A DNA stretch of 42,518 bases from Patescibacteria group bacterium (GTDB lineage Bacteria; Patescibacteriota; Patescibacteriia; WFTA01; S139-112), in NCBI GenBank assembly GCA_015485695.1, contig WFTB01000047.1, positions 1-42,518 on the forward strand, given 5' to 3'. The translations under genes were made by a program, and so were the position numbers. This document shows, piece after piece, positions 3-20,032 of this stretch; the first letter of the stretch is position 1; each line of letters begins with the position of its first letter. Below the pieces are notes generated by a model. The model had not been told where the DNA came from. It worked only from the letters and a program-made list of their open reading frames with translations, and did not search any database.

Positions 3-2594
3 TCACTGGCAAACCTTGATGATGCGCAAACATTCAGTTCTCTCCAGACATTCACATCAGGCATATATTCAAACGCTTCAACAACAATCACCGCAAACGC
101 AACCACAACCGGAAACTTTACCGCGCAAGACACTTTGTTTGTGAAAGATGGTAAGGTGGGGGTTGCCACCGAAGCTCCTGAGACTGAATTGAACGTAAAA
201 GGAACCATTAGAATAGTTGATACAAGCGGAAATTCCGATAGCAGATGGGACTTGTATACATTGGCGAACAAGGACACGGCAAACTCATGCGATACCGGAA
301 CTTCGGGCCTTGTTGACGCGTTCTGTATCAGCAATGTTGATACTGCCGGCGCCCAATTCAGACTGCAACAGAACGGAGACATTACTTTGGCGGGCACGGC
401 AAACACAAACGGCGATCCGGATGTTGCCGAGTATGTTCCCGTTGCTGACGAAAGCATAGAGCCGGGAGATATTGTGGTGGTTACCGATCTTGTGAAACAG
501 GGAGAAGACAGCGATTCGTTTAATAATTTTATAGCCGACACATCAAGCACCCCGTACGACAAATCCATAATCGGCGTTATATCGGAAGATCCGGGATTGC
601 TTTTGTCGGGCGGAAAAGCTTTTGAGACGGATTCGGGAGAACGGTGGAAGCTTGGAGACTTGAGGGCGCTCGCCATAGCCGGACGTGTGTTTACCAAGGT
701 TTCAACCGAAAACGGCCCAATCAAGTCCGGAGACAAGATTACCACCTCAAGCATAAAAGGAGTCGGCATGAAAGCGACGGAGAGCGGTGCTGTCGTCGGT
801 GTCGCGTTGCAGGGATTTGACGAATCTTCGTCAACCTCAACGGCTAGCCTGATTGACGGCACGACGGTTAGTGTCGGAAAAATACTGGTCTTGATAAGCC
901 CGAGCTATAACGATGTTGAAGAAGAAGAAATAGAAGGTGATGCGGAAGAAGAAGATATTGACACCGCAACACTGTCGGTTGAATACGGTCAGGTAAACGC
1001 CGATATCGTTGTGGGGGGCACTGCGGCATTCTCCACCATTGACGTGACATCGGGAACCACGCTGTACGGAACATTGAACGTCAATGACGCGGCGTTGTTT
1101 ACCGGCACTCTTACGGTGCAGTCAGATGCTCGATTTGAACGGGACATTGAGGTAATCGGAAGCGTAACGGCCGGTGATTTGACGATCGGCAATTTGGCAA
1201 CCGCGCGCACCGTTCGCGTTTTGGAAGGATTTGAAGTGTTTGGCATTGACACGTCGTCAACAAGCACGGAGCCGATTGTGGAGATTCGTGACGCGTCCGC
1301 TTCGTCAACCGACGTGCTTATCGTTCGAGGAGACTCACGTTTTGACGGCAGTGTTTCAATCAACGGCGACGTGTATATAGACGGTACCATAATGGCAGAC
1401 GGTTTGGTCTTGGGTTTGTCCGACATGCGCTCAACATCTCATGAAACAGACGACGATATTGACGGCGTGCAGTCCGTAGAGCTGAAAGTTGTGAGCGGTC
1501 CGGAGGAAAATGCTGCCACGCTCGTTGTTACGTCAGGCGCTGACTTTGAAGGCGACATAACCGTGTCGGACGCGGTTGTTCGTGGCACGTTGACCGTTAC
1601 AGACGGCCTTACCGTTGCCGGAGATTTTGAACTTTCGGGGGCTCTGGTGCAAGAATTTAAAGAGGCTGATGGAGAATTTTTGAAGATAGGCGATGCCGTT
1701 GCAATCGTTGGAGAGAATGAAGTCGGGCTGACATGGGCGGACGCGCAGGAATTCAAACCCGCTATCGGGATTGTGGTGTCTGTTCGCGAAGCTGAGGATG
1801 AAGAGAATGGAGAAGAAGGAAGACGTTCAGTGAACGTTGCCATTGGCGGAACCATTGGCGGATTTGAAGGTTTGGCGACAGGGCAAAGATATTTCCTTGC
1901 GGATATTGTTTCATATGCGGAAGGCAGCTCCACCTCAACATTGCCCGCCTTGATTCCGAACGAGCCGACGGTTGTCGGGTCCGCCATACAAGTTATCGGA
2001 ATCGCGCGGTCTTCCGGAGAATTACTTGTGAATCCGAGCCTTGATTGGAGGGTGGTTGACGGTGACGGTTCGTCCGAGACCGATGATGCGATGATATATG
2101 TACAACAATACAATGTTGACAGTATAGTCATAGAGCAACAGGCGGAAGATAATGATTCGGGAACAAGCGCAGATTCCGCGGACATAACAAGTGAGTCGCA
2201 AGATAATGTTTCATCTGATGACAACATCTCAAATACTCAGAACAATAATGAATCAAATGATGGATTGTCAGGTGAATTTTCCGACGATATGACTCCGCCT
2301 TCGGATGTGTCAGATGAAGAATCGGGAAGCGAAACCGATGTAAATAACGTTGGTGATTCGATTGATTCAAGCGACTCAGCGGAAGTCTCTCCCGAAAACA
2401 TAACATCTGATGTAGATGATACTACGGAAGATGACACGAACGACGCATCTGACATTGATGTTTTAATAGAGGGTGACCCGACACCTGAGATTTTGGCGGA
2501 TGATGATTATAACGCAACCGACCAAGACGTTGTCGAAGTCGAATCCGCCACCACGGATTCTGATAGTGTTCAGACCGACCAACTCGGTGTATAA
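3..2594 (+). CDS. Secreted beta-strand-repeat surface protein, 5' truncated by window edge
   Basis: The reading frame is open from base 3, so the start lies outside the window and only the C-terminal part (about 863 residues) is seen. The early part reads like phage-tail/adhesin stalk sequence (FVKDGKVGVATEAPETELNVKG). It is followed by a domain with DVAEYVPV, a PGDIVVV segment and the GPIKSGDKITTSS / GVGMKATESG motifs, which I recognise from many large Patescibacteria surface proteins. Next come short Thr/Val/Gly-rich beta-repeats (GTLTVTDGLTVAGDF type), a second GDAVAIVGENEVGL-like module, and a long Asp/Ser/Glu-rich, probably disordered tail from about base 2130. No C-terminal anchor is visible. 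It is probably an exported fibre or adhesin; the ligand is unknown. Its last 40 codons are duplicated after the next gene. Confidence 0.75.
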   Translation, partial: SLANLDDAQTFSSLQTFTSGIYSNASTTITANATTTGNFTAQDTLFVKDGKVGVATEAPETELNVKGTIRIVDTSGNSDSRWDLYTLANKDTANSCDTGTSGLVDAFCISNVDTAGAQFRLQQNGDITLAGTANTNGDPDVAEYVPVADESIEPGDIVVVTDLVKQGEDSDSFNNFIADTSSTPYDKSIIGVISEDPGLLLSGGKAFETDSGERWKLGDLRALAIAGRVFTKVSTENGPIKSGDKITTSSIKGVGMKATESGAVVGVALQGFDESSSTSTASLIDGTTVSVGKILVLISPSYNDVEEEEIEGDAEEEDIDTATLSVEYGQVNADIVVGGTAAFSTIDVTSGTTLYGTLNVNDAALFTGTLTVQSDARFERDIEVIGSVTAGDLTIGNLATARTVRVLEGFEVFGIDTSSTSTEPIVEIRDASASSTDVLIVRGDSRFDGSVSINGDVYIDGTIMADGLVLGLSDMRSTSHETDDDIDGVQSVELKVVSGPEENAATLVVTSGADFEGDITVSDAVVRGTLTVTDGLTVAGDFELSGALVQEFKEADGEFLKIGDAVAIVGENEVGLTWADAQEFKPAIGIVVSVREAEDEENGEEGRRSVNVAIGGTIGGFEGLATGQRYFLADIVSYAEGSSTSTLPALIPNEPTVVGSAIQVIGIARSSGELLVNPSLDWRVVDGDGSSETDDAMIYVQQYNVDSIVIEQQAEDNDSGTSADSADITSESQDNVSSDDNISNTQNNNESNDGLSGEFSDDMTPPSDVSDEESGSETDVNNVGDSIDSSDSAEVSPENITSDVDDTTEDDTNDASDIDVLIEGDPTPEILADDDYNATDQDVVEVESATTDSDSVQTDQLGV

Positions 2595-2597
2595 TGT
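2474..2597 (+). repeat. 124-bp exact direct repeat, copy 1
   Basis: Identical base for base to 7900-8023. This copy encodes the C-terminal end and stop codon of the beta-repeat protein and carries a TATAAT box (2590-2595). Weaker homology continues to 2612: after five mostly different bases both copies share ATGGATGATA, the first codons of the gene at 8029. Here that start leads only to a 9-codon remnant ending at 2629. Confidence 0.97.
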
Positions 2598-2698
2598 TGG
2601 ATATGGATGATAAATATAAACGAATGTTTTAAAATCGGTTTTTAGTGTTATTTAAAATAACATTCGTTCTTCTGTATAAAAATTGTTTGCATAAGCGC

Positions 2699-7899: not shown

Positions 7900-8023
7900 T
7901 GACCCGACACCTGAGATTTTGGCGGATGATGATTATAACGCAACCGACCAAGACGTTGTCGAAGTCGAATCCGCCACCACGGATTCTGATAGTGTTCAGA
8001 CCGACCAACTCGGTGTATAATGT
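7900..8023 (+). repeat. 124-bp exact direct repeat, copy 2 (stub of the beta-repeat gene)
   Basis: Perfect copy of 2474-2597. Here it has no start codon of its own in frame, so it is a stub of the upstream protein's C-terminus, stop codon included. It lies between the LamG stop and the gene at 8029 and supplies that gene's -10 box. Confidence 0.97.
7993..8021 (+). promoter_or_regulatory. Promoter of the 8029 gene, leaderless type
   Basis: A perfect TATAAT (8016-8021) ends 7 nt before ATG 8029, which would put the transcription start at or next to the start codon. The -35 (TGTTCA, 7993-7998, 17-nt spacing) is weak. The same box and spacing occur in repeat copy 1. Confidence 0.6.
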
Positions 8024-8028
8024 GAATT

Positions 8029-8721
8029 ATGGATGATATAAAGAAGAAAAAACAACGACAAATCGCGAATGACTCAAGAGTGTCCGGGGGCGGTCGTGAC
8101 TCTGTTATTGAATCTGTGTGGCAAGGCGAACACGGTTTAAATCAAGACAGAACTAGTTTTATACGAGCTCGAGCGTTGCCTTGGACCGCGGTGGCTCTGT
8201 TAGTCGGCGTGATTGTCATAGTCGGAGCGGGGTCTTATTTGTATGGACATATCGGTTCGTCCGTTATAACGGGTGAAAGTGACGGGAATTCGCAACAATC
8301 CGCCATGAAAAACAAAGACACTCTAAGGGGTAATGCGAATAAAGCTCTCGAGTTTGACCCGCTTGCGTATTATGGTGTTTCGACCGAAGATGGGTTGGTG
8401 TATTTTGCTCGCATAACCGATGTCAATGAACGGCATTATCGACTCGAGAGCGTGTTTTACGGCAAGGTTCCCGATCCTCAATCAATCTCCGAACGAACGA
8501 ACGATGATGGCGAAAGTTCCGGTGAATTGGATGAACCCAAATCTCCCGACGCTATTGAAGGGGGCATTGCCACCGCGACCATTGAATTGATAAAACTGGG
8601 TACAGAAAACTATCGCCCGGAAGATGTGTTAATCGTGCCCAGGGAGAATGTTAAGCAAGTTTTCGTATTGAGTGATTCGTCACCGGTTTTGAGAGCGATA
8701 AGGCAATACTATTCCGAATAG
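8029..8721 (+). CDS. Single-pass membrane protein of unknown function
   Basis: 230 residues. I do not recognise a named family. The N-terminus is short, cytosolic and basic (DDIKKKKQRQ), followed by one clear transmembrane helix at about residues 51-72 (ALPWTAVALLVGVIVIVGAG). A linker rich in Ser/Asn/Gln leads to an extracytoplasmic domain with the segment YYGVSTEDGLVYFARITD and a VLIVPRENVKQVFVL segment. The arrangement of a TM helix plus a small mixed beta domain resembles conserved hypothetical proteins of Patescibacteria. The start is fixed by the TATAAT box 7 nt upstream. There is no Shine-Dalgarno sequence, as expected for a leaderless message. Confidence 0.75.
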   Translation: MDDIKKKKQRQIANDSRVSGGGRDSVIESVWQGEHGLNQDRTSFIRARALPWTAVALLVGVIVIVGAGSYLYGHIGSSVITGESDGNSQQSAMKNKDTLRGNANKALEFDPLAYYGVSTEDGLVYFARITDVNERHYRLESVFYGKVPDPQSISERTNDDGESSGELDEPKSPDAIEGGIATATIELIKLGTENYRPEDVLIVPRENVKQVFVLSDSSPVLRAIRQYYSE

Positions 8722-11909: not shown

Positions 11910-12665
11910 TTATTTGTCTATTCTTGATATAAGCCAGAAAATCGCAACTCCGGCGAACAACCAAAGAGTGTGTTGCGCTATTTTCTTTTTTTCTTGTTCT
12001 CTATGTAGCTCCGGCACCAAGTCGGCGAGAGCCAGATATATGAAATTGCCGGCGGCTATGGCGATGAACATCGGCATTATGCTCTCGAATCTGCTTGTAT
12101 AGAAAAACGCCAGCAAAGCTCCGACTACGCTGGTCATCGCGAATATGAAATTATACAGTATTACTTTCGCCTTTGACATGCCGGCATGGAGCAAAATTCC
12201 GGCGTCCGATATTTCCTGAGGTATTTCATGCGCTATTATCGCTATCGTGGTTGCTATTCCTATTTCGGGTGATACGAGAAATGCCGTGGCTATCAGTATT
12301 CCGTCTATGAAATTGTGGATTCCGTCTCCCATTAGGTTTGTCACAGCGACATGCGTTTTGCTGTCAGACGGGCAATTCGCTCCGTGGCAATGATGCCAAT
12401 GTATAAGTCTTTCTATCAAGTAAAAGCCAAGTATCGACATTAGCATAATGGCAAAAAAATTCCCCGGGTCGATTGCCGGATTTTCAAACACCTCCGGTAG
12501 TAATTCGAGGAAAACGGACGCAAGCAAAACTCCGCTCGCTATTCCGATTACGTTTTTGAGATTTATGTCTATTTGTTTCTTGCTTTGCATTATAATTACA
12601 ATGCCGACAAGAGATATCGCTCCAACTATGGAAGAAGCTATGATTATTTGAGATAATATATTCAT
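11910..12665 (-). CDS. ZIP-family divalent metal transporter
   Basis: 251 residues with about eight hydrophobic helices. ZIP proteins move Zn(II) or other divalent metals into the cytoplasm. The binuclear metal site is clear: HNFIDG in helix 4 (H117) and HEIPQEISD in helix 5 (H146, E147). The loop before helix 4 is His/Cys-rich ([10 protein letters not shown]), typical of the variable metal-sensing loop. First gene of a minus-strand run with xthA and perhaps ung; xthA is itself a metal-dependent enzyme, but a functional link is only speculation. The substrate metal cannot be told from sequence alone. Confidence 0.93.
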
Positions 12666-12723: not shown

Positions 12724-12760
12724 ACGAATTTATTTAGCCTGTTTTGTCCTCTTGATTATA

Positions 12761-12912
12761 ACCCCCCAAAAACCCCTCACCTCCCGAAAAATAATCTTTT
12801 CCCCGAAAATACTCTTTAGCTTTCATAAACGATATTCCTATATCGCTTCCTAAAGCTCCAGACTTTTGCGGAAAAAACTCTATTTTTTAACTTTCAAAAA
12901 CTTTTTAAATAA
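12761..12912 (+). repeat. Structured intergenic repeat, copy A (upstream of comEC)
   Basis: The 140 bases 12761-12900 align without gaps to 19833-19972 with only three differences that I can count. A shorter, diverged copy is at 16793-16918. The core can fold as AGCTTT...AAAGCT enclosing CGATAT-TCCT-ATATCG, followed by a conserved GACTTTTGCGGAA segment and an A/T-rich tail. It ends about 20 nt before the comEC start, in the same orientation as the gene. No ORF. Confidence 0.9.
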
Positions 12913-12934
12913 TCTCTAACGCAAATATCGCAAT

Positions 12935-15625
12935 ATGCGTCGAAGTCATGTCGGAATTTATGTGTTTTTGTGCTTTATAGCGGGTGTGTTGCTTCGTTCT
13001 TTGTTTGTTGTCGAATTCGAGATATTGTATTTTTTGGCTACGATAAGCTCAAGCGCCGCTTTTTTTATTTTGGTAAAACATAAAGATGATTTTAAAGAAA
13101 CCGTTCACAAATCATCTCGCGCTCGTTTGGCGATTGTTTTATTGGGCCCGCTTTTGGTGTTGCTTGGAGCGATTCGCGTCGAATCTGAACTTTTGCCGAA
13201 ATGTGATGAAGAATTGTCGTCCGAATTTATGCCCATAACCTGTATAAATGACCGCGCGAATATGACAACCGTAAACGGCACAATAGTCGCGGAACCGGAA
13301 ATTCGAGACAGTGGGGCTCGATACACGATATCCGCTCAAGAATACCGCGGACGAATATTGTTGTTTGCTTCGTCGTATCCGATGTATGAATACGGAGATG
13401 TGTTAAGCGTGCGTTGCCGGTATGAGAGTCCGGAAGAATTCGATGGATTTGATTATCCGGGGTTTCTTGCCAAGAGCGGTATATATTCTTTGTGCAGACG
13501 ACCGGCTCTGGTTGAAAAGGTGGGTTATGATGAATTTCCGATATTCACGATAAGCGGTATTCGTCAAAAACTGCTTAAAGCGAAATCTCGTTTTCAAGAT
13601 ATTTTGGACGAAAGATTGACAAGCAAAGAATCCGAATTGACAAGTTCTCTGGTTTTGGGCAACAGAGATGGTGTTTCAAAAGACATAAAGGAATGGTTTC
13701 GCATTACGGGAACATCTCATGTTATGGCGATATCCGGAATGCATATCATGATTTTGACGGTGTTGCTTTACAATATTTTTTATTGGCTCAAGGTACCTCG
13801 CCATAAATCGTTTTTCGTAGCAATAGCAATATTGTTGTCATTCGTCGCGATTGTGGGTTTTCGCGCGTCCGGAATCAGGGCGGTCATGTTCGCCATGACG
13901 GCAATGCTCGGAGAAGTGATACACAGACCGGTGAAACCTCTGAATTTATTGTTATTTGTCGCTGTGTTGATTTTGATGATAAATCCGTTGCTTCTTGTCT
14001 ATGACGTTGGATTTCAATTGTCTTTTTTGGCCGTTTTGGGATTGACGTACCTTTCGCCCATTCTTCAAAAATTGTTAGTAAAAATTCCAAATCCCTTTAG
14101 ACTCAAGGATGTATTGATAATGACGCTTTCCGCTCAGCTTTTTACCTTGCCTTGGCTTTTGTATCAATTCGGATTCGTGTCAATAATCGCTCCGATAGTG
14201 AATATATTGGTATTGCCGGTAGTTCCGTTTATTATGGGCGGAGGTCTTGCGACAATATTCTCGGGCATCGTATTTGGTCCCATGGCGTTTATTACCGGTC
14301 TTGTCACGTCTTTGTTCGCTTGGTATGTATTGTCTGTCGTCGAGTTGTTTGCTCGCGTGCCATTCGCGCAAACGGAAGGTTCTTTGACGTTTTGGCATGT
14401 CGTGTTGATATACGCCTTTGTATTGCCTCCGATTATGAGTGAGCGAGTACGCGAATATTTGACAAAACTTATGGATAGAAAGTTTCGTAGTTTTTGTATT
14501 CGGGACGCGATTTTTTTCAATAGGTTTGTTTTGTCGATGAAACGTCGAGTGACAACAAGAAACGTAAACCGCAAACACTCGGATTACGGTAAGATATCTG
14601 GCGATGATAGTGTATCCCATCATGTGTATTCGCTTGATGATTTGGATTCGGTTCAGCTCCCGACGATTGATGAGACCGAATCCCGTAGAGAAAATACGGG
14701 CTTTTTGGCAAGATTTTTTCGTTTTTTCAAAAAAACGAAAAAAAGCATTAAAAAGCGAAGGGTCGTCATATTTCTTGTCATAGCCGTTTTGTCGGCGGTT
14801 TTTATGTTTGTTTGGGCGTCGACGAGATACCCGAAAAACTTGGAGGTAGTGTTTTTTGACATAGGTCAGGGAGACGGATATCTGATACGTACGCCCGGAG
14901 GACAAAATATTCTGGTTGACGGAGGTCCGACGGACGCCATAGTCCGCAAGTTGGAAAATTATTTGCCAATCACTGAGCGTACCATAGATTTGGTGGTCTT
15001 GACTCATCCGCACGCCGACCATGTTTCCGGACTTGCGGAGGTGTTTGAGCGATATGATATAAAGAGAGTTTTGTTTTCGGATGCCGAATACGATACGGAC
15101 ACGTATTTTGAATTCAGGAACATGGTCGATATTGAGAACGGAATATATCTCGATGAAGCGACCGCGTCTTTGAGCTATACGTTTGAGACCGACGATGAGC
15201 CCGTTTTTCTCGAAATCAAATATCCGACCAATCGCATTGGCGCGTATTCGGACGATGAAGCGAACAATTCGTCAATCGTTATGAAGCTTAAATACTACGA
15301 AACGGTTTTTCTGCTTACCGGCGATATCGAGAAAGAGGCCGAATCGGATTTAATCAATATTAATGTCGATTTGAGCGCCGATGTTTTGAAGGTCGGGCAT
15401 CATGGATCTGACACTTCGTCTTCGGAAGAATTTATCAAAGCGGTTTCTCCGGAGTACGCTGTCATACAAGTAGGGGAAGGAAATCCCTATGGTCATCCTT
15501 CCGTGCGCACATTGAAAAGACTGGAAAGGTCGGGGGCGAAAGTTTTGAGAAATGACGAGCTTGGCGATATTGTTTTTGAAGTGGGCAAGGACGGAATAGT
15601 CGATATAAGGCAATATTCACGTTGA
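12935..15625 (+). CDS. comEC: ComEC/Rec2 DNA-uptake channel
   Basis: 896 residues. ComEC forms the inner-membrane channel that takes up single-stranded DNA in natural transformation. It has an N-terminal membrane part with an OB-like DUF4131 region (about 1-200), then the polytopic Competence domain (about 230-500) with the GTSHVMAISGMHI signature. The C-terminal metallo-beta-lactamase-like domain has FFDIGQGDG, the metal motif HPHADH (H691, H693, D695, H696) and HHGSD (H822, H823). The nuclease-like site is intact. Unusual is a polar linker of about 110 residues between membrane and lactamase parts, with a very basic patch (FFRFFKKTKKSIKKRR) just before an extra TM helix. Repeat copy A lies in its 5' region. 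Confidence 0.95.
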   Translation: MRRSHVGIYVFLCFIAGVLLRSLFVVEFEILYFLATISSSAAFFILVKHKDDFKETVHKSSRARLAIVLLGPLLVLLGAIRVESELLPKCDEELSSEFMPITCINDRANMTTVNGTIVAEPEIRDSGARYTISAQEYRGRILLFASSYPMYEYGDVLSVRCRYESPEEFDGFDYPGFLAKSGIYSLCRRPALVEKVGYDEFPIFTISGIRQKLLKAKSRFQDILDERLTSKESELTSSLVLGNRDGVSKDIKEWFRITGTSHVMAISGMHIMILTVLLYNIFYWLKVPRHKSFFVAIAILLSFVAIVGFRASGIRAVMFAMTAMLGEVIHRPVKPLNLLLFVAVLILMINPLLLVYDVGFQLSFLAVLGLTYLSPILQKLLVKIPNPFRLKDVLIMTLSAQLFTLPWLLYQFGFVSIIAPIVNILVLPVVPFIMGGGLATIFSGIVFGPMAFITGLVTSLFAWYVLSVVELFARVPFAQTEGSLTFWHVVLIYAFVLPPIMSERVREYLTKLMDRKFRSFCIRDAIFFNRFVLSMKRRVTTRNVNRKHSDYGKISGDDSVSHHVYSLDDLDSVQLPTIDETESRRENTGFLARFFRFFKKTKKSIKKRRVVIFLVIAVLSAVFMFVWASTRYPKNLEVVFFDIGQGDGYLIRTPGGQNILVDGGPTDAIVRKLENYLPITERTIDLVVLTHPHADHVSGLAEVFERYDIKRVLFSDAEYDTDTYFEFRNMVDIENGIYLDEATASLSYTFETDDEPVFLEIKYPTNRIGAYSDDEANNSSIVMKLKYYETVFLLTGDIEKEAESDLININVDLSADVLKVGHHGSDTSSSEEFIKAVSPEYAVIQVGEGNPYGHPSVRTLKRLERSGAKVLRNDELGDIVFEVGKDGIVDIRQYSR

Positions 15626-15650
15626 CTTTTACGCTAAATGCGAGTATTAT
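15622..15650 (+). promoter_or_regulatory. Promoter of the adenylate-kinase-like gene
   Basis: TTGACT (15622-15627), exactly 17 nt, TATTAT (15645-15650). The -35 box overlaps the comEC stop codon. The predicted leader is about 48 nt and includes the small GC hairpin at 15674-15685. Confidence 0.7.
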
Positions 15651-15673
15651 GTAACTCGTAATAAACTTTTTTC

Positions 15674-15690
15674 GCGCGATTGCGCTTTTT
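15674..15690 (+). terminator. Small GC hairpin with U-tract in the leader (attenuator-like)
   Basis: GCGC-GATT-GCGC (15674-15685) followed by five T. It lies downstream of the 15622 promoter, so it could end comEC transcripts or attenuate the next gene. The stem is only 4 bp. Confidence 0.4.
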
Positions 15691-15704
15691 ATTTAAATTT
15701 TTTT

Positions 15705-16748
15705 ATGTCAGACCAAAAGAATCAAAAATACGGTACCAAAGAGTTTTATGAAGAGCGGGTGGGTGAACACTTCGCAAAATTGCGCGAGCATATCGATGAT
15801 ACGGGATTTGTTTTGTTTTTTCTCGCGAAGAAAAGCGCGGGCAAGGGTACGTATTCCAAGATTTTGCAAAACATAACGGATGGCAAAATCATGCACCTGT
15901 CGGTGGGAGATCTTGTTAGGGCTTCTGAAAAGCGCGCTCTTGACCCGGAACAAAGAGAGGAATTTGTAAATGAACTTCGTGAGTTTTACAAAGGAAGCGA
16001 TGATATCGACGATGTAGTGGATAAGTTTATCAAAGAAGCGAGCGATTTGTCCGCTCTTCTTCCGACCGAAATGGTTATGGCCCTTATTGAAAAGGCGGTC
16101 AAGGACAATCAAGGAAAAGCGCTCGTCATAGACGGGTTTCCAAGGTCTCTTGATCAAGTTGAAATAGCAATGCGCATGCAAGATGATTTTGAGAAAAAGG
16201 GTCTTCCATCGGCTTTCGTGGAGCTTGATTGTCCGGATGACGTATTGGTTCAACGTCAATTACATCGAGTCGTGTGTCCAGAGTGTCAAACACCTAGAAA
16301 TGTGAAGGTATTGCTTACTGAACAAATAGAGTATGACGAGGATTCGGGAGAGTATCACTTGATATGCGATAACAAAGAGTGCGATAATGTCAGAATGAAG
16401 AAGAAATATGCGAACGTTACCGCCGACGATATCGATAAGATAAAGGCAGTGCAGGATCAGGTGAAAGAGCTGATTCATCACGTCAGGGAAAAAGCGGCTC
16501 ATTGTCACATAAAGGTAAGCAACCATGTGCACGTTGACGATGCCGGCAATCATGACCCGGATGATTTTACCTTGGAGGCGAGTTTTGATTGGGATCCGGA
16601 GTCAAAAAAAGTGATTAAAAATTTCAAACCTTGGATTATAAAAGACGACGAAGGTCGTGAAGCGTATTCGAGATGGCCGGATCCTGTGGTGGCCGAATTG
16701 GTAAAGGCGTTGAGCGAATGGCTTGATTTAAAAAAACAATCAAAATAG
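15705..16748 (+). CDS. Divergent, enlarged adenylate-kinase-family nucleotide kinase
   Basis: 347 residues, against about 215 for standard adenylate kinase. An extra N-terminal helix region (1-34) precedes a P-loop region LAKKSAGKGT (40-49), in which the first Gly of the Walker A motif is replaced by Ala/Lys. HLSVGDLVRA (64-73) and the NMP-binding DGFPRS (143-148) are recognisable. The LID region is long and holds C191-x2-C194 and C221-x4-C226, a likely zinc knuckle. A C-terminal extension (about 260-347) has no counterpart in ordinary Adk. Fold assignment to the Adk/P-loop NMP-kinase family is firm, but substrate is not. No ordinary adk is seen in this window, so whether this is the cell's adenylate kinase or a relative is open. 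Confidence 0.8.
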   Translation: MSDQKNQKYGTKEFYEERVGEHFAKLREHIDDTGFVLFFLAKKSAGKGTYSKILQNITDGKIMHLSVGDLVRASEKRALDPEQREEFVNELREFYKGSDDIDDVVDKFIKEASDLSALLPTEMVMALIEKAVKDNQGKALVIDGFPRSLDQVEIAMRMQDDFEKKGLPSAFVELDCPDDVLVQRQLHRVVCPECQTPRNVKVLLTEQIEYDEDSGEYHLICDNKECDNVRMKKKYANVTADDIDKIKAVQDQVKELIHHVREKAAHCHIKVSNHVHVDDAGNHDPDDFTLEASFDWDPESKKVIKNFKPWIIKDDEGREAYSRWPDPVVAELVKALSEWLDLKKQSK

Positions 16749-16792
16749 ACGGTAGTATTGTATTTTCTTTCTTTAATCAATCGCGCTACTCT

Positions 16793-16918
16793 ATTTTCTC
16801 CTAAAAACTCTTCGGCTTTCATAAACGATATGTATATATCGCTTCCTAAAGCTCCAGACTTTTGCGGAAGAAAATCTCTTTTTTCAGCTTGCAAAAATTT
16901 TTAGACAGTATCTTAGAG
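16793..16918 (+). repeat. Structured intergenic repeat, copy B (upstream of the M20 peptidase)
   Basis: Diverged copy sharing the core CTTTCATAAACGATAT and ATATCGCTTCCTAAAGCTCC with copies A and C. The stems are kept: outer GGCTTT/AAAGCT (an A-U pair changed to G-U), inner CGATAT-GTAT-ATATCG. Its end (AAAAATTTTTAGACAGT) matches copy C; a further partial AAAAATTTTTAGAC occurs at about 16968-16981. Confidence 0.85.
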
Positions 16919-17022
16919 TGGTGCTCGGTTTTGTGAAGGCTGTTCGCGTATATGTGTTTTGTCTCGTGAAAAATTTTTAGACGTCTTCAAAGTAACCGGA
17001 TCATTTGCGCGTTTCACGTTAT

Positions 17023-18336
17023 ATGGAATTTTATAAGAAATTATTGAAAGAGTTTGTCGCGTTCAAGAGTATTTCTGCCGATGGAGCGTTCAGAGATGAT
17101 TGTTATGATACGGCTCGGTGGCTTTCTGATTTGTGTCGTGAACGAGGATTTGACGTCGAATTGGTCGAAGGGTATGGCAATCCGATTGTGTTGGCGACGT
17201 TTGTTGTCAATCCCGTATTCGACACCTGTTTGATATACGGACATTATGATGTTCAGCCGGCGAGCTTGAGCGACGGATGGGATTCCGACCCGTTCGTTCT
17301 GAACGAACGTGACGGAAGATTATACGCGCGCGGGGTTATGGACAATAAGGGGCAATTTCTCATTCATCTTGTAACCCTGTTTGACTTGATTGAGAAAAAC
17401 CGATTGGGATTTAACGTGGTTATCATGATGGAAGGCAATGAAGAGACCGGTTCTACGGGTTTGGGTGATTTTGTTTCGGATTACGCCGATGTGTTGAAAT
17501 CCGATGTTGCCATGTTTTCAGATGGCGAAACGGGAGAGTGCCCGACAATAGATGCTGGGTTTCGAGGGGGTTTTAACGCCACTTTGACTTTGCGAACGTC
17601 TCACACCGATTTGCATTCCGGGCTTTATGGAAGCGCGGTTCCGAGCGCGACTTTTGAACTTTGCAAATTGGTGTCAAACTTTATCGATAGCGAAAATAGG
17701 GTAACGATTGCCGGGTTTTATGAAGATGTCGATTTGATGGAAGATGCCGTGAGCGAGACGGTTAGAGAAATTCCGTTTGATTACGAAGAATTTAAACGAA
17801 TTTCCGGTACCAAGAAAATAATAACCGAGCCTGGGCATAATTTTTATTCTCAAGTCGGTTTGCGTCCCGCCGTTCAGGTGACTGGTATTTCATCAGGATA
17901 TACCGGAGAAGGATATCGGAACAGTATTCCGGCGAAAGCCGAGGCCAAGATAAACGTACGTTTGGTCAAAAATCAAAATCCCGACAAGATTATCAAGTTG
18001 TTCGAAGAACACATAAGGAACGAACTTCCCGATTATGTTGATTACGCTTTCGATGCCCATGACCCTTATGAAGGAGTTGTTCTTGATTTTGACTCGTCTT
18101 ACGCCAAGCGCGCCGTGAAAATTCTCGAACATATCTCCGGGCACAAACCCATCTTCAAATACTGTGGAGGAGGTTTGCCCGTTGTTACATATTTTTATGA
18201 AATACTCGGCATTCCGACGCTTTCAATCGGTCTCGCCAACGAGGATAGCGGTATGCACGCGACGAATGAAAACTTTAGGATTGATTATATCGAACGAGGG
18301 TTAAAATTCAGCGAAAAATTTCTCAGCAAGCATTAG
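17023..18336 (+). CDS. M20-family metallopeptidase (dipeptidase-like)
   Basis: 437 residues from ATG 17023. An in-frame TTG lies upstream, but the family N-terminus (EFYKKLLKEFVAFKSIS) begins at this ATG. Co-catalytic zinc site: GHYDVQPA (H74), GVMDNKG (D107, the bridging Asp), EGNEETGS (catalytic E140 and ligand E141). The dimerisation/lid domain is in the middle (HTDLHSGLYG). M20 enzymes of this subgroup cleave dipeptides or N-acyl amino acids in the cytoplasm. It runs straight into the M24 peptidase gene, suggesting a small peptide-salvage operon, sensible for an organism that imports peptides from a host or community. Confidence 0.93.
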   Translation: MEFYKKLLKEFVAFKSISADGAFRDDCYDTARWLSDLCRERGFDVELVEGYGNPIVLATFVVNPVFDTCLIYGHYDVQPASLSDGWDSDPFVLNERDGRLYARGVMDNKGQFLIHLVTLFDLIEKNRLGFNVVIMMEGNEETGSTGLGDFVSDYADVLKSDVAMFSDGETGECPTIDAGFRGGFNATLTLRTSHTDLHSGLYGSAVPSATFELCKLVSNFIDSENRVTIAGFYEDVDLMEDAVSETVREIPFDYEEFKRISGTKKIITEPGHNFYSQVGLRPAVQVTGISSGYTGEGYRNSIPAKAEAKINVRLVKNQNPDKIIKLFEEHIRNELPDYVDYAFDAHDPYEGVVLDFDSSYAKRAVKILEHISGHKPIFKYCGGGLPVVTYFYEILGIPTLSIGLANEDSGMHATNENFRIDYIERGLKFSEKFLSKH

Positions 18337-18337
18337 A

Positions 18338-19468
18338 ATGCGGGGTTTTATGATAAAAGCACACTTTGCCAGCACTAAGGATTCGGACATGAGATATGCG
18401 ATTAAGACGCGCGTGTCTGATCCCGTATTTTATTTGCAGGTGCACGATAAGTTGTATGTTTTTCTAGATAGCAGAGAAATTGACGTGTTCAGAGAGGAAA
18501 ACCGAAATCCGTTCTTGCGCGCGGTGCCGGTTAATCCGTTTGTGCAGGAGGTCAAAAAAAGCTCAGACAATGCACGCTTTAATCATAAGCTCGTTTTTTG
18601 TTTGTTAAGCCGATATGATGTTATAAGCGAGCCGATTACAGTACCTCGAACATTTCCGCTAGATTTGGCGGATTATTTGCGTGAAAAAGGTGTTAATTTG
18701 AGAGTTGAGAATACGTTGTTTCCGGAACGTGCCCAAAAAACTTCGGAAGAGGTGAAGTATATTCAAAGCGCGTTGGAGCGCACGCAAAAAGCGTTTCAAA
18801 TTATTGAAAACATTCTGGCCGAATCGAATATAATAGGGGATAGTATTTTGTTTGAAGGAAAGCCCTTAACGGTAGAACGCGTTAAGCTGATTGTAGACGG
18901 AGTGTTGCTTGAGCATAGTTTATTTAGTGTCGAAGGAATGATAATGTCCTCCGGTAAGCATACCGCAATACCGCACCACGAAGGTTGTGGTGCAATCAGG
19001 CCACATGTACCGTTAATAGTCGACTTGTTCCCTCAAGATCGTTTGACAGGATACTTTGCCGATATGACTCGAACGTATGTAAAAGGGAAGCCGACGGATG
19101 CGTTCAAAAAAATGTATAATACTGTCATTGAAGCTCAGGAAAAAGCATTATCTGCCGTAGTTCCGGGCGCGGTCGTGAAAGAAATCCATAAACAAGTATC
19201 CGATACGTTTATTGAACACGGGTATCACGTTGGAGACTCGGGATTTATACATGGTACCGGACATGGTTTGGGACTTGACTTACATGAAGAACCATCACTC
19301 AGCCATGCTGGCGATGGAATTCTCGAAATCGGGAACGTTATTACCGTTGAGCCTGGGTTGTACTATGCTGAGCACGGAGGCGTGAGAGTGGAAGATGTTA
19401 TTGAAGTCACTGAAACTGGTTATAAAAATCTTACGTCTTATCCCAAGGATAATTATATTATCCCGTAG
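18338..19468 (+). CDS. M24-family Xaa-Pro aminopeptidase
   Basis: 376 residues if started at ATG 18338; ATG 18350 with CGGGG just upstream is an alternative start. An N-terminal creatinase-like domain (about 1-140) precedes the pita-bread catalytic domain. Metal ligands are visible in order: Asp in PLIVDLFPQ, Asp in FADMTRTY, His in HGTGHGLGLDLHEEP, Glu in TVEPGLYY and Glu in VRVEDVIEV. It removes N-terminal residues ahead of proline. It begins 1 nt after the M20 peptidase stop, so the two are co-transcribed and probably act in one peptide-degradation route. Confidence 0.92.
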   Translation: MRGFMIKAHFASTKDSDMRYAIKTRVSDPVFYLQVHDKLYVFLDSREIDVFREENRNPFLRAVPVNPFVQEVKKSSDNARFNHKLVFCLLSRYDVISEPITVPRTFPLDLADYLREKGVNLRVENTLFPERAQKTSEEVKYIQSALERTQKAFQIIENILAESNIIGDSILFEGKPLTVERVKLIVDGVLLEHSLFSVEGMIMSSGKHTAIPHHEGCGAIRPHVPLIVDLFPQDRLTGYFADMTRTYVKGKPTDAFKKMYNTVIEAQEKALSAVVPGAVVKEIHKQVSDTFIEHGYHVGDSGFIHGTGHGLGLDLHEEPSLSHAGDGILEIGNVITVEPGLYYAEHGGVRVEDVIEVTETGYKNLTSYPKDNYIIP

Positions 19469-19530
19469 TCATATATTTGTTTTATCTAATTTTAGATGAA
19501 ATATCTCTTATTTATTTCTAATGTGAATTG

Positions 19531-19539
19531 TGGTATAAT
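19531..19539 (+). promoter_or_regulatory. Extended -10 promoter of the structured ncRNA
   Basis: TGG-TATAAT (19531-19539) is a perfect extended -10. Seven bases on, at 19546, begins a GAAGTCC that pairs with the 3' end of the RNA, so start site and fold agree. No good -35 is seen. Confidence 0.7.
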
Positions 19540-19545
19540 TACCGT

Positions 19546-19806
19546 GAAGTCCGAATGACTTAACCAGGTTCTTCAAATCAGTTCTTTGAATGAACCTTAT
19601 ATGATAGTTATGCTCCTTCGCAGAGGTGATTATCATGCGGTTCTAGGGTTTTTTGTGATTTCGTCGTTGTATCTCGAGTGCGGATATCGTCTGAGTTCGA
19701 AGGTATGTGGCGGGATTGACCCATGTAATTCAAGGAACTCGGTTAAGTTTCATATAGGGCTTCAATTAAGCAACCTCGCCTCGAACAGGGGCGGGATTGT
19801 TTTTTG
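19546..19806 (+). ncRNA. Unassigned structured non-coding RNA with a long closing rod and three-way junction
   Basis: Between M24 peptidase and cca. The closing stem is built from GAAGTCC (19546-19552) with GGGCTTC (19757-19763), ACTTAACC (19558-19565) with GGTTAAGT (19741-19748), and TTCTTTGAAT (19582-19591) with ATTCAAGGAA (19728-19737). One arm then opens directly with GAACC (19592-19596)/GGTTC (19639-19643) and TGATA (19602-19606)/TATCA (19631-19635). A second, weaker arm fills 19644-19727. It is about 218 nt before its terminator and lacks the marks of tmRNA, SRP RNA, RNase P RNA or rRNA. The rod shape and size are reminiscent of 6S RNA, but I cannot align it to 6S. ORFs inside are not credible. 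Confidence 0.7.
19771..19806 (+). terminator. Intrinsic terminator of the ncRNA
   Basis: Left arm 19771-19782 pairs with 19788-19799 (11 of 12 positions, GC-rich, some G-U) around a GAACA loop, followed by six T. It gives the ncRNA a defined 3' end. Confidence 0.85.
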
Positions 19807-19832
19807 TCAAAAAATTAAGTACTCTGTAAGAA

Positions 19833-19990
19833 ACTCCCCAAAAACCCCTCACCTCCCGAAAAATAATCTTTTCCCCGAAAATACTCTTTAGCTTTCATAG
19901 ACGATATTCCTATATCGCTTCCTAAAGCTCCATACTTTTGCGGAAAAAACTCTATTTTTTAACTTTCAAAAATTTTTAGACAGTCTCTTA
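19833..19990 (+). repeat. Structured intergenic repeat, copy C (upstream of cca)
   Basis: Nearly identical to copy A over 140 bases; its end resembles copy B. It lies just after the ncRNA terminator and 43-200 nt ahead of the cca start, in the same orientation as that gene. Confidence 0.9.
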
Positions 19991-20032
19991 CAGGTAACAG
20001 CGCGCGGTTTATGGCCGTTTGAGCAAAGCAAT

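What the first reader, a model, noticed from the sequence alone, without database searches (positions are those of the whole stretch)
12761..19990. Three-copy structured leader repeat upstream of comEC, an M20 peptidase and cca
Seen: copies at 12761-12912, 16793-16918 and 19833-19990, always on the plus strand and always between 20 and about 110 nt before a plus-strand gene. A and C are about 98% identical over 140 ungapped bases; B is diverged but keeps the nested stems (outer AGCTTT/AAAGCT, inner CGATAT/ATATCG), with an A-U to G-U change and a variable 4-nt loop. The conserved GACTTTTGCGGAA that follows is not explained by the hairpin. Inference: either a cis-acting RNA (riboswitch or protein-binding leader linking DNA uptake, peptide use and tRNA maturation) or a non-autonomous mobile repeat that tolerates intergenic sites. 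I know of no named element with this sequence.
Basis: partly seen in the sequence, partly recalled or inferred. Interest (0 to 1): 0.78.

Follow-up and report, generated by a model that had tools for sequence, protein, structure and literature searches.

The report
Palindromic intergenic mobile repeat (MITE-like)
A roughly 165-base, hairpin-forming repeat that has copied itself into at least a dozen gaps between genes of one tiny Patescibacteria genome; it looks like a small hitch-hiking mobile element rather than a switch that controls DNA uptake, peptide use and tRNA genes together.

Summary
The repeat is real: A 12753-12920, B ~16759-16916, C 19825-19991. A and C are 97% identical over 146 nt. 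It belongs to a dispersed, lineage-specific family in the window's 984-kb Patescibacteria genome. There are about nine full or near-full copies in three subfamilies, plus short and one-ended derivatives. No convincing copy was found in 56 relatives.

The element is a full-length quasi-palindrome with imperfect terminal inverted repeats (AGARACYGYCTAAAAAG). Its central hairpin covaries between subfamilies: 8 of 21 pairs have compensatory changes, against 2.1 in shuffles.

Copies almost identical to each other sit in unrelated places. One lies in a convergent gap, and two run into the 3' ends of lgt and serS. In the only same-family genome (G001), comEC overlaps prfB and the M20-cca gap lacks the repeat. 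This is an ERIC/Correia-like MITE, not a leader regulating a comEC/M20/cca regulon. Two expected features are missing: no target duplication was detected and no partner transposase was found. The covariation suggests that the folded hairpin itself is selected, as RNA or single-stranded DNA; why is open. Novelty: new member of a known kind.

The parts
12753..12920 (+). Copy A, full length, divergent gap between a ZIP transporter gene (11910-12665, -) and comEC (12935, +)
   Evidence: R1 187 bits, R2 167 bits
12801..12871 (+). Central interrupted hairpin of copy A (inner stem 12830-12835/12840-12845, middle stem 12818-12823/12852-12857, basal arm includes GACTTTTGCGG)
   Evidence: Minimum-energy fold of the copy z -4.8; covariation with other subfamilies
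12898..12917 (+). Right terminal inverted repeat of copy A (AAACTTTTTAAATAATCTCT, 3 mismatches to the consensus)
16759..16916 (+). Copy B, diverged, lacks the normal left end; between an adenylate-kinase-like gene (15705-16748) and the M20 peptidase gene
   Evidence: R1 142 bits; R2 120.7 bits over 16773-16916
16798..16867 (+). Central hairpin of copy B
16894..16913 (+). Right terminal repeat of copy B (AAAATTTTTAGACAGTATCT, 2 mismatches)
19825..19991 (+). Copy C, full length, between an M24 peptidase gene (followed by a terminator-like hairpin at 19775-19795) and cca (20033)
   Evidence: R1 195 bits, R2 167 bits; terminator scan
19829..19844 (+). Left terminal inverted repeat of copy C (AGAAACTCCCCAAAAA)
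19873..19943 (+). Central hairpin of copy C
19969..19988 (+). Right terminal inverted repeat of copy C (AAAATTTTTAGACAGTCTCT, 1 mismatch)

Best explanation
A lineage-specific, non-autonomous mobile repeat of the ERIC/Correia kind (a palindromic MITE). It is about 165 bp with imperfect terminal inverted repeats (AGARACYGYCTAAAAAG...) and a central interrupted hairpin, and it carries no gene. Shown: about nine full or near-full copies in three subfamilies, plus short and one-ended derivatives, dispersed in intergenic gaps of one 984-kb Patescibacteria genome; copies nearly identical within a subfamily but with unrelated flanks; the three window loci lack the repeat in the nearest relative held; the ends are conserved by sequence, the centre by compensatory pairing. 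Inferred: a transposase supplied in trans, now absent or not assembled, recognises the ends and moves the element. Copies persist mainly in non-coding gaps, often in what would be 5' untranslated regions, where the transcript would fold into a long hairpin that may affect RNA processing.
For: 97-99% identity between copies at unrelated loci (A, C, C6:22357); no similarity beyond the ends is reported by the search, and the neighbouring genes differ. Terminal inverted repeat motif: 17 matches in the genome against 1 for the control pattern, while 37 relatives are at control level. The model matches the element's own opposite strand at up to 67 bits, so it is quasi-palindromic. Deletion derivatives: C44 lacks the whole central hairpin, the C18 copy is cut at its right end, B lacks its left end. 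Diverged subfamilies at C35 and C17/C39 and a 160-bp palindrome with 15/16 matching ends at C24. In same-family genome G001 comEC overlaps prfB, and M20-cca has a 336-bp gap without the repeat. No common pathway among neighbouring genes; one copy lies between convergent genes.
Against: No target-site duplication detected. No transposase with matching ends found: only an IS4-like gene, an IS30-like gene and an IS1595-like IS end, and no match for PF01797 or PF13586. Covariation of the inner hairpin is more than a plain MITE needs. G001 is another genus, so loss there cannot be separated from gain here for any single locus.
Confidence: 0.78

Rival explanations
1. A cis-acting leader RNA (riboswitch or protein-binding leader) that coordinates the downstream genes.
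For: Most copies lie 5' of a gene, and in six of eight two-ended co-directional gaps the same end faces the gene (not significant). The central stems covary. C2:23037 and C15 have TATA-like boxes just before the element (by eye).
Against: Recent copies are 97-99% identical along their whole length including unpaired parts. The repeat is absent before comEC, M20 and cca in G001. A convergent copy has no leader role, and two copies run into the 3' ends of genes. Neighbouring genes have no shared function. No Rfam match. Gene-proximal copies have no consistent distance to the start codon (about 7 to 300 nt).
Confidence: 0.08
2. A mobile repeat whose folded single-stranded form (DNA or RNA) is what the mobilising enzyme or a host protein recognises, as for attC or REP-type sites, rather than a plain DDE-transposase MITE.
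For: Compensatory changes in 8 of 21 pairs within the genome (11 of 24 with L191) while internal loops stay open. No target duplications. Full-length quasi-palindrome.
Against: No Y1/REP transposase in the genome. Ends do not match the attC core as I recall it. Neighbours are housekeeping genes, not cassettes. The ends are conserved by sequence rather than by pairing within a copy, as expected for double-strand DNA recognition.
Confidence: 0.12
3. Chance or assembly artefact, such as repeats joined wrongly in a draft genome.
For: Draft of 47 contigs; one copy spans two contig ends (C17/C39).
Against: Three copies sit inside one 42-kb contig with coherent gene order; seven copies with distinct flanks lie inside contigs; subfamilies differ by many substitutions.
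Confidence: 0.02

Closest known systems
ERIC (enterobacterial repetitive intergenic consensus)
   Same: Size class, imperfect palindrome over the full length, mostly intergenic, deletion and insertion variants, no gene, no known transposase (partly from my own knowledge; PMC10969869).
   Different: No sequence relation seen; different phylum; about 10-20 copies rather than tens to hundreds; inner hairpin covaries between subfamilies.
Correia / NEMIS elements of Neisseria
   Same: About 100-200 bp, terminal inverted repeats, often directly upstream of genes, transcript would fold into a long hairpin (PMC10969869).
   Different: Terminal sequence differs; no promoter signal found inside A, B or C; target duplication not seen.
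REP/REPIN elements with RAYT (Y1) transposases
   Same: Short palindromic intergenic repeats.
   Different: Longer element with true terminal inverted repeats; no Y1 transposase in the genome.
Element on Uhrbacteria contig JAUYIW010000040.1 (L191:2403-2720)
   Same: About 295 bp with 24-bp matching inverted ends; first hairpin fits model R1 (34.2 bits, next best 22.8 in 747 kb) with the same 6 bp / 6x6 loop / 6 bp / tetraloop plan.
   Different: Different terminal repeat sequence and a second hairpin; homology is only probable (E 0.007, rough calibration).

Membership tests
MITE (palindromic intergenic repeat, ERIC/Correia kind) | Small, no protein-coding capacity | tested here: met
   About 165 bp; no coding frame kept across copies (reverse-strand frame read by eye)
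MITE (palindromic intergenic repeat, ERIC/Correia kind) | Terminal inverted repeats | tested here: met
   9-15 of 16 matching in nine of ten two-ended copies (A is 6 of 16, its left boundary set by eye); motif 17 hits against 1 control
MITE (palindromic intergenic repeat, ERIC/Correia kind) | Multiple dispersed copies with unrelated flanks | tested here: met
MITE (palindromic intergenic repeat, ERIC/Correia kind) | Intergenic location, stable stem-loop transcript | tested here: met
   (fold tested, transcription not); description of MITEs in PMC10969869
MITE (palindromic intergenic repeat, ERIC/Correia kind) | Target-site duplication (in young copies) | tested here: not met
   No excess of flank duplications in 10 two-ended copies, including recent ones; PMC10969869 notes that duplications fade with age, and the exact ends are uncertain
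MITE (palindromic intergenic repeat, ERIC/Correia kind) | Autonomous partner with the same ends | tested here: inconclusive
   Three transposase families searched; no matching ends; draft genome, partner may be lost
MITE (palindromic intergenic repeat, ERIC/Correia kind) | Observed mobility (filled/empty sites in sister strains) | tested here: inconclusive
   Three loci without the repeat in a different genus; no sister strain held
Cis-regulatory leader RNA | Conserved position ahead of orthologous genes | tested here: not met
   Absent ahead of comEC, M20 and cca in G001
Cis-regulatory leader RNA | Covarying secondary structure | tested here: met
Known Rfam family | Score at or above gathering threshold | tested here: not met
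REP/RAYT element | Y1 transposase (PF01797) in the genome | tested here: not met
Integron attC site | GTTRRRY/RYYYAAC core and cassette array | tested here: not met
   By eye, against the core as I recall it: TTTRRRY instead of GTTRRRY in the conserved ends; neighbours are core genes with M20-cca synteny in G001

The most novel reading that the evidence does not exclude
A Patescibacteria-wide class of mobile intergenic elements (this genome, and an Uhrbacteria relative with different ends) whose folded hairpin with conserved internal loops is itself under selection, because it is the mobilisation substrate or is bound by a host or RNase partner, so that the element spreads through a folded nucleic acid.
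Probability: 0.2. Interest if true: 0.65.

Novelty: new member of a known kind. Interest (0 to 1): 0.38.

Why it matters
It adds an ERIC/Correia-like element to a phylum (Patescibacteria) with small genomes in which I found no described MITE in the library searched. Copies sit at the 5' ends of core genes such as comEC and cca, where a hairpin could change expression. The split between sequence-conserved ends and a structure-conserved centre gives a testable handle on what moves such elements.

Tried and rejected
Riboswitch or leader linking three pathways: rejected, see rivals. Protein-coding on the reverse strand (PQKSGALGSDIGISFMKA...): open in several copies, but copies carry frame-shifting indels and the C17 and C35 subfamilies do not keep the sequence (by eye). 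attC/integron cassette site: core motif and gene content do not fit. REP/RAYT: no Y1 transposase. IS1595 as partner: the IS at C41 appears to be inserted into a copy, and its end sequence differs. IS4-like transposase at C12: ends do not resemble the repeat. Exact core pattern in GTDB contigs and viral contigs: none. Phages and plasmids: none. Models R1/R2 over about 1.9 Mb of relatives: nothing convincing beyond L191. Palindrome density is not higher in this genome than in relatives by a simple arm search, so only the sequence-specific family stands out. Orientation bias toward downstream genes: 6 of 8 two-ended co-directional copies, not significant. A script comparing flank identities stopped half way and its global-alignment flank values are not informative; I do not rest on it.

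Full report
Observation. The repeat is present as described: A 12753-12920, B about 16759-16916, C 19825-19991, all on the + strand. A and C are 97% identical over 146 nt. B aligns over 109 nt at 86% and lacks the usual left end. The nested stems, the A-U to G-U change in B and the variable tetraloop are confirmed. The 'unexplained' GACTTTTGCGGAA is the 3' basal arm of the same interrupted hairpin, pairing with CCCCGCAAATA. Folding is stronger than in shuffles: z -4.8 for A, -2.9 for B, -5.3 for C.

Copy number and range. A BLAST-type search of the window's genome (984 kb, 47 contigs, 99.5% complete) gives seven clear copies and two fragments. A covariance model adds two diverged subfamilies, C35:392-561 and the copy spanning the ends of C17 and C39. 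That makes about nine full or near-full copies (one of the seven, C44, is a 96-bp deletion form). Shorter derivatives with the same ends are at C2:23037, C15 and C26, and one-ended remnants at C1, C41 and elsewhere. C24:3082-3241 is a 160-bp palindrome with 15 of 16 matching ends. There is no convincing match by DNA in 56 relatives. The same-family genome G001 has none by the model (best E 1.9). The exact core is absent from GTDB contigs and viral contigs (very near records may be left out by the tool), and nothing similar was found in phages or plasmids. Rfam has no match. prfB relatives place the organism in Patescibacteria.

Anatomy. Both ends carry AGARACYGYCTAAAAAG pointing inward. Used as a 20-nt end motif with up to 3 mismatches, this has 17 matches in the genome against 1 for the reversed control, and 37 relatives are at control level. 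The element matches its own opposite strand with up to 67 bits, so it is a quasi-palindrome. Left and right ends of one copy are no more alike than ends of different copies (11.1 against 10.7 of 16; the left boundary of A was set by eye). This suggests that the ends are kept as a sequence, as a protein-binding end would be. The centre behaves differently. Across own-genome subfamilies 8 of 21 pairs show compensatory changes (shuffle mean 2.1, 0 of 500 as high; slid controls 0-4). With the Uhrbacteria sequence it is 11 of 24. The internal loops stay unpaired. The alignments were made by MAFFT without structure, but only three or four independent lineages contribute and the structure was predicted on the same alignments.

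Context. Downstream genes include comEC, M20, cca, a kinase gene, pyrD, an ECF sigma gene (after uvrA) and others (several names are read from the protein starts, not tested). The C18 copy lies between the 3' ends of a histidine kinase gene and a methyltransferase-like gene, the C35 copy overlaps the 3' end of lgt, and the C26 copy the 3' end of serS. Two-ended copies in co-directional gaps face the next gene with the same end in 6 of 8 cases, which is not significant. In G001 comEC abuts prfB without a gap, and M20 and cca are neighbours with about 336 bp between them; neither place holds the repeat, nor do the 220 bp held upstream of M20 there.

Mechanism. Near-identical copies in unrelated flanks, defined ends, deletion derivatives and lineage restriction point to a non-autonomous mobile element (shown: dispersal; inferred: transposition in trans). 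No target duplication was found, and no transposase with these ends: one IS4-like gene, an IS30-like gene and an IS1595-like IS that appears inserted in a copy; PF01797 and PF13586 gave no match. A review describes MITEs as AT-rich, intergenic, stem-loop forming, with duplications that fade over time, and reports Correia transcripts cut by RNase III (PMC10969869). A similar fate for transcripts here is possible but untested. No promoter or terminator stands out inside A, B or C.

Possible wider family. Model R1, trained only on A-type copies, finds one outlier in 747 kb of relatives' DNA: Uhrbacteria contig JAUYIW010000040.1, 34.2 bits, E 0.007, next best 22.8. It is the first hairpin of a roughly 295-bp element with 24-bp matching inverted ends just downstream of prfB. 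About 1.75 Mb searched with model R2 gave no second case. This is suggestive only.

Verdict. It is a new ERIC/Correia-like element of a known kind. Its one unusual property is a hairpin that covaries between subfamilies.

Noticed in passing
L191:2403-2720 (Uhrbacteria, JAUYIW010000040.1): About 295-bp element with 24-bp matching inverted ends (AACCCTAGAGTACATTCTCGAACA) just downstream of prfB; its first hairpin fits model R1.
   Followed up: partly
window 2474-2619 and 7900-8045: A 146-bp, 95% identical direct repeat at the 3' ends of two large surface-protein-like genes; separate from the finding.
   Followed up: no
window ~19470-19810; L128 ~1560-1840: Gap between M24 and copy C holds a terminator hairpin and perhaps a small RNA; G001 has a closed stem AACTCTGGG...CCCAGAGTTTTTT at the matching place. 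No credible Rfam match.
   Followed up: partly
G000 contig C41, 22937-23351: An IS1595-like insertion sequence appears to be inserted into a copy of the repeat, and the contig ends inside it.
   Followed up: partly
G000 contig C12, 38500-43226 (L110, L111): Contig end with IS4-like and IS30-like transposase genes and an alanine-racemase-like gene, AT-rich; possibly foreign or mis-binned DNA.
   Followed up: no
G000 contigs C17 and C39, first ~151 bp: Two contigs begin in the same copy of a diverged subfamily, so the copy count of that subfamily is a lower bound.
   Followed up: no
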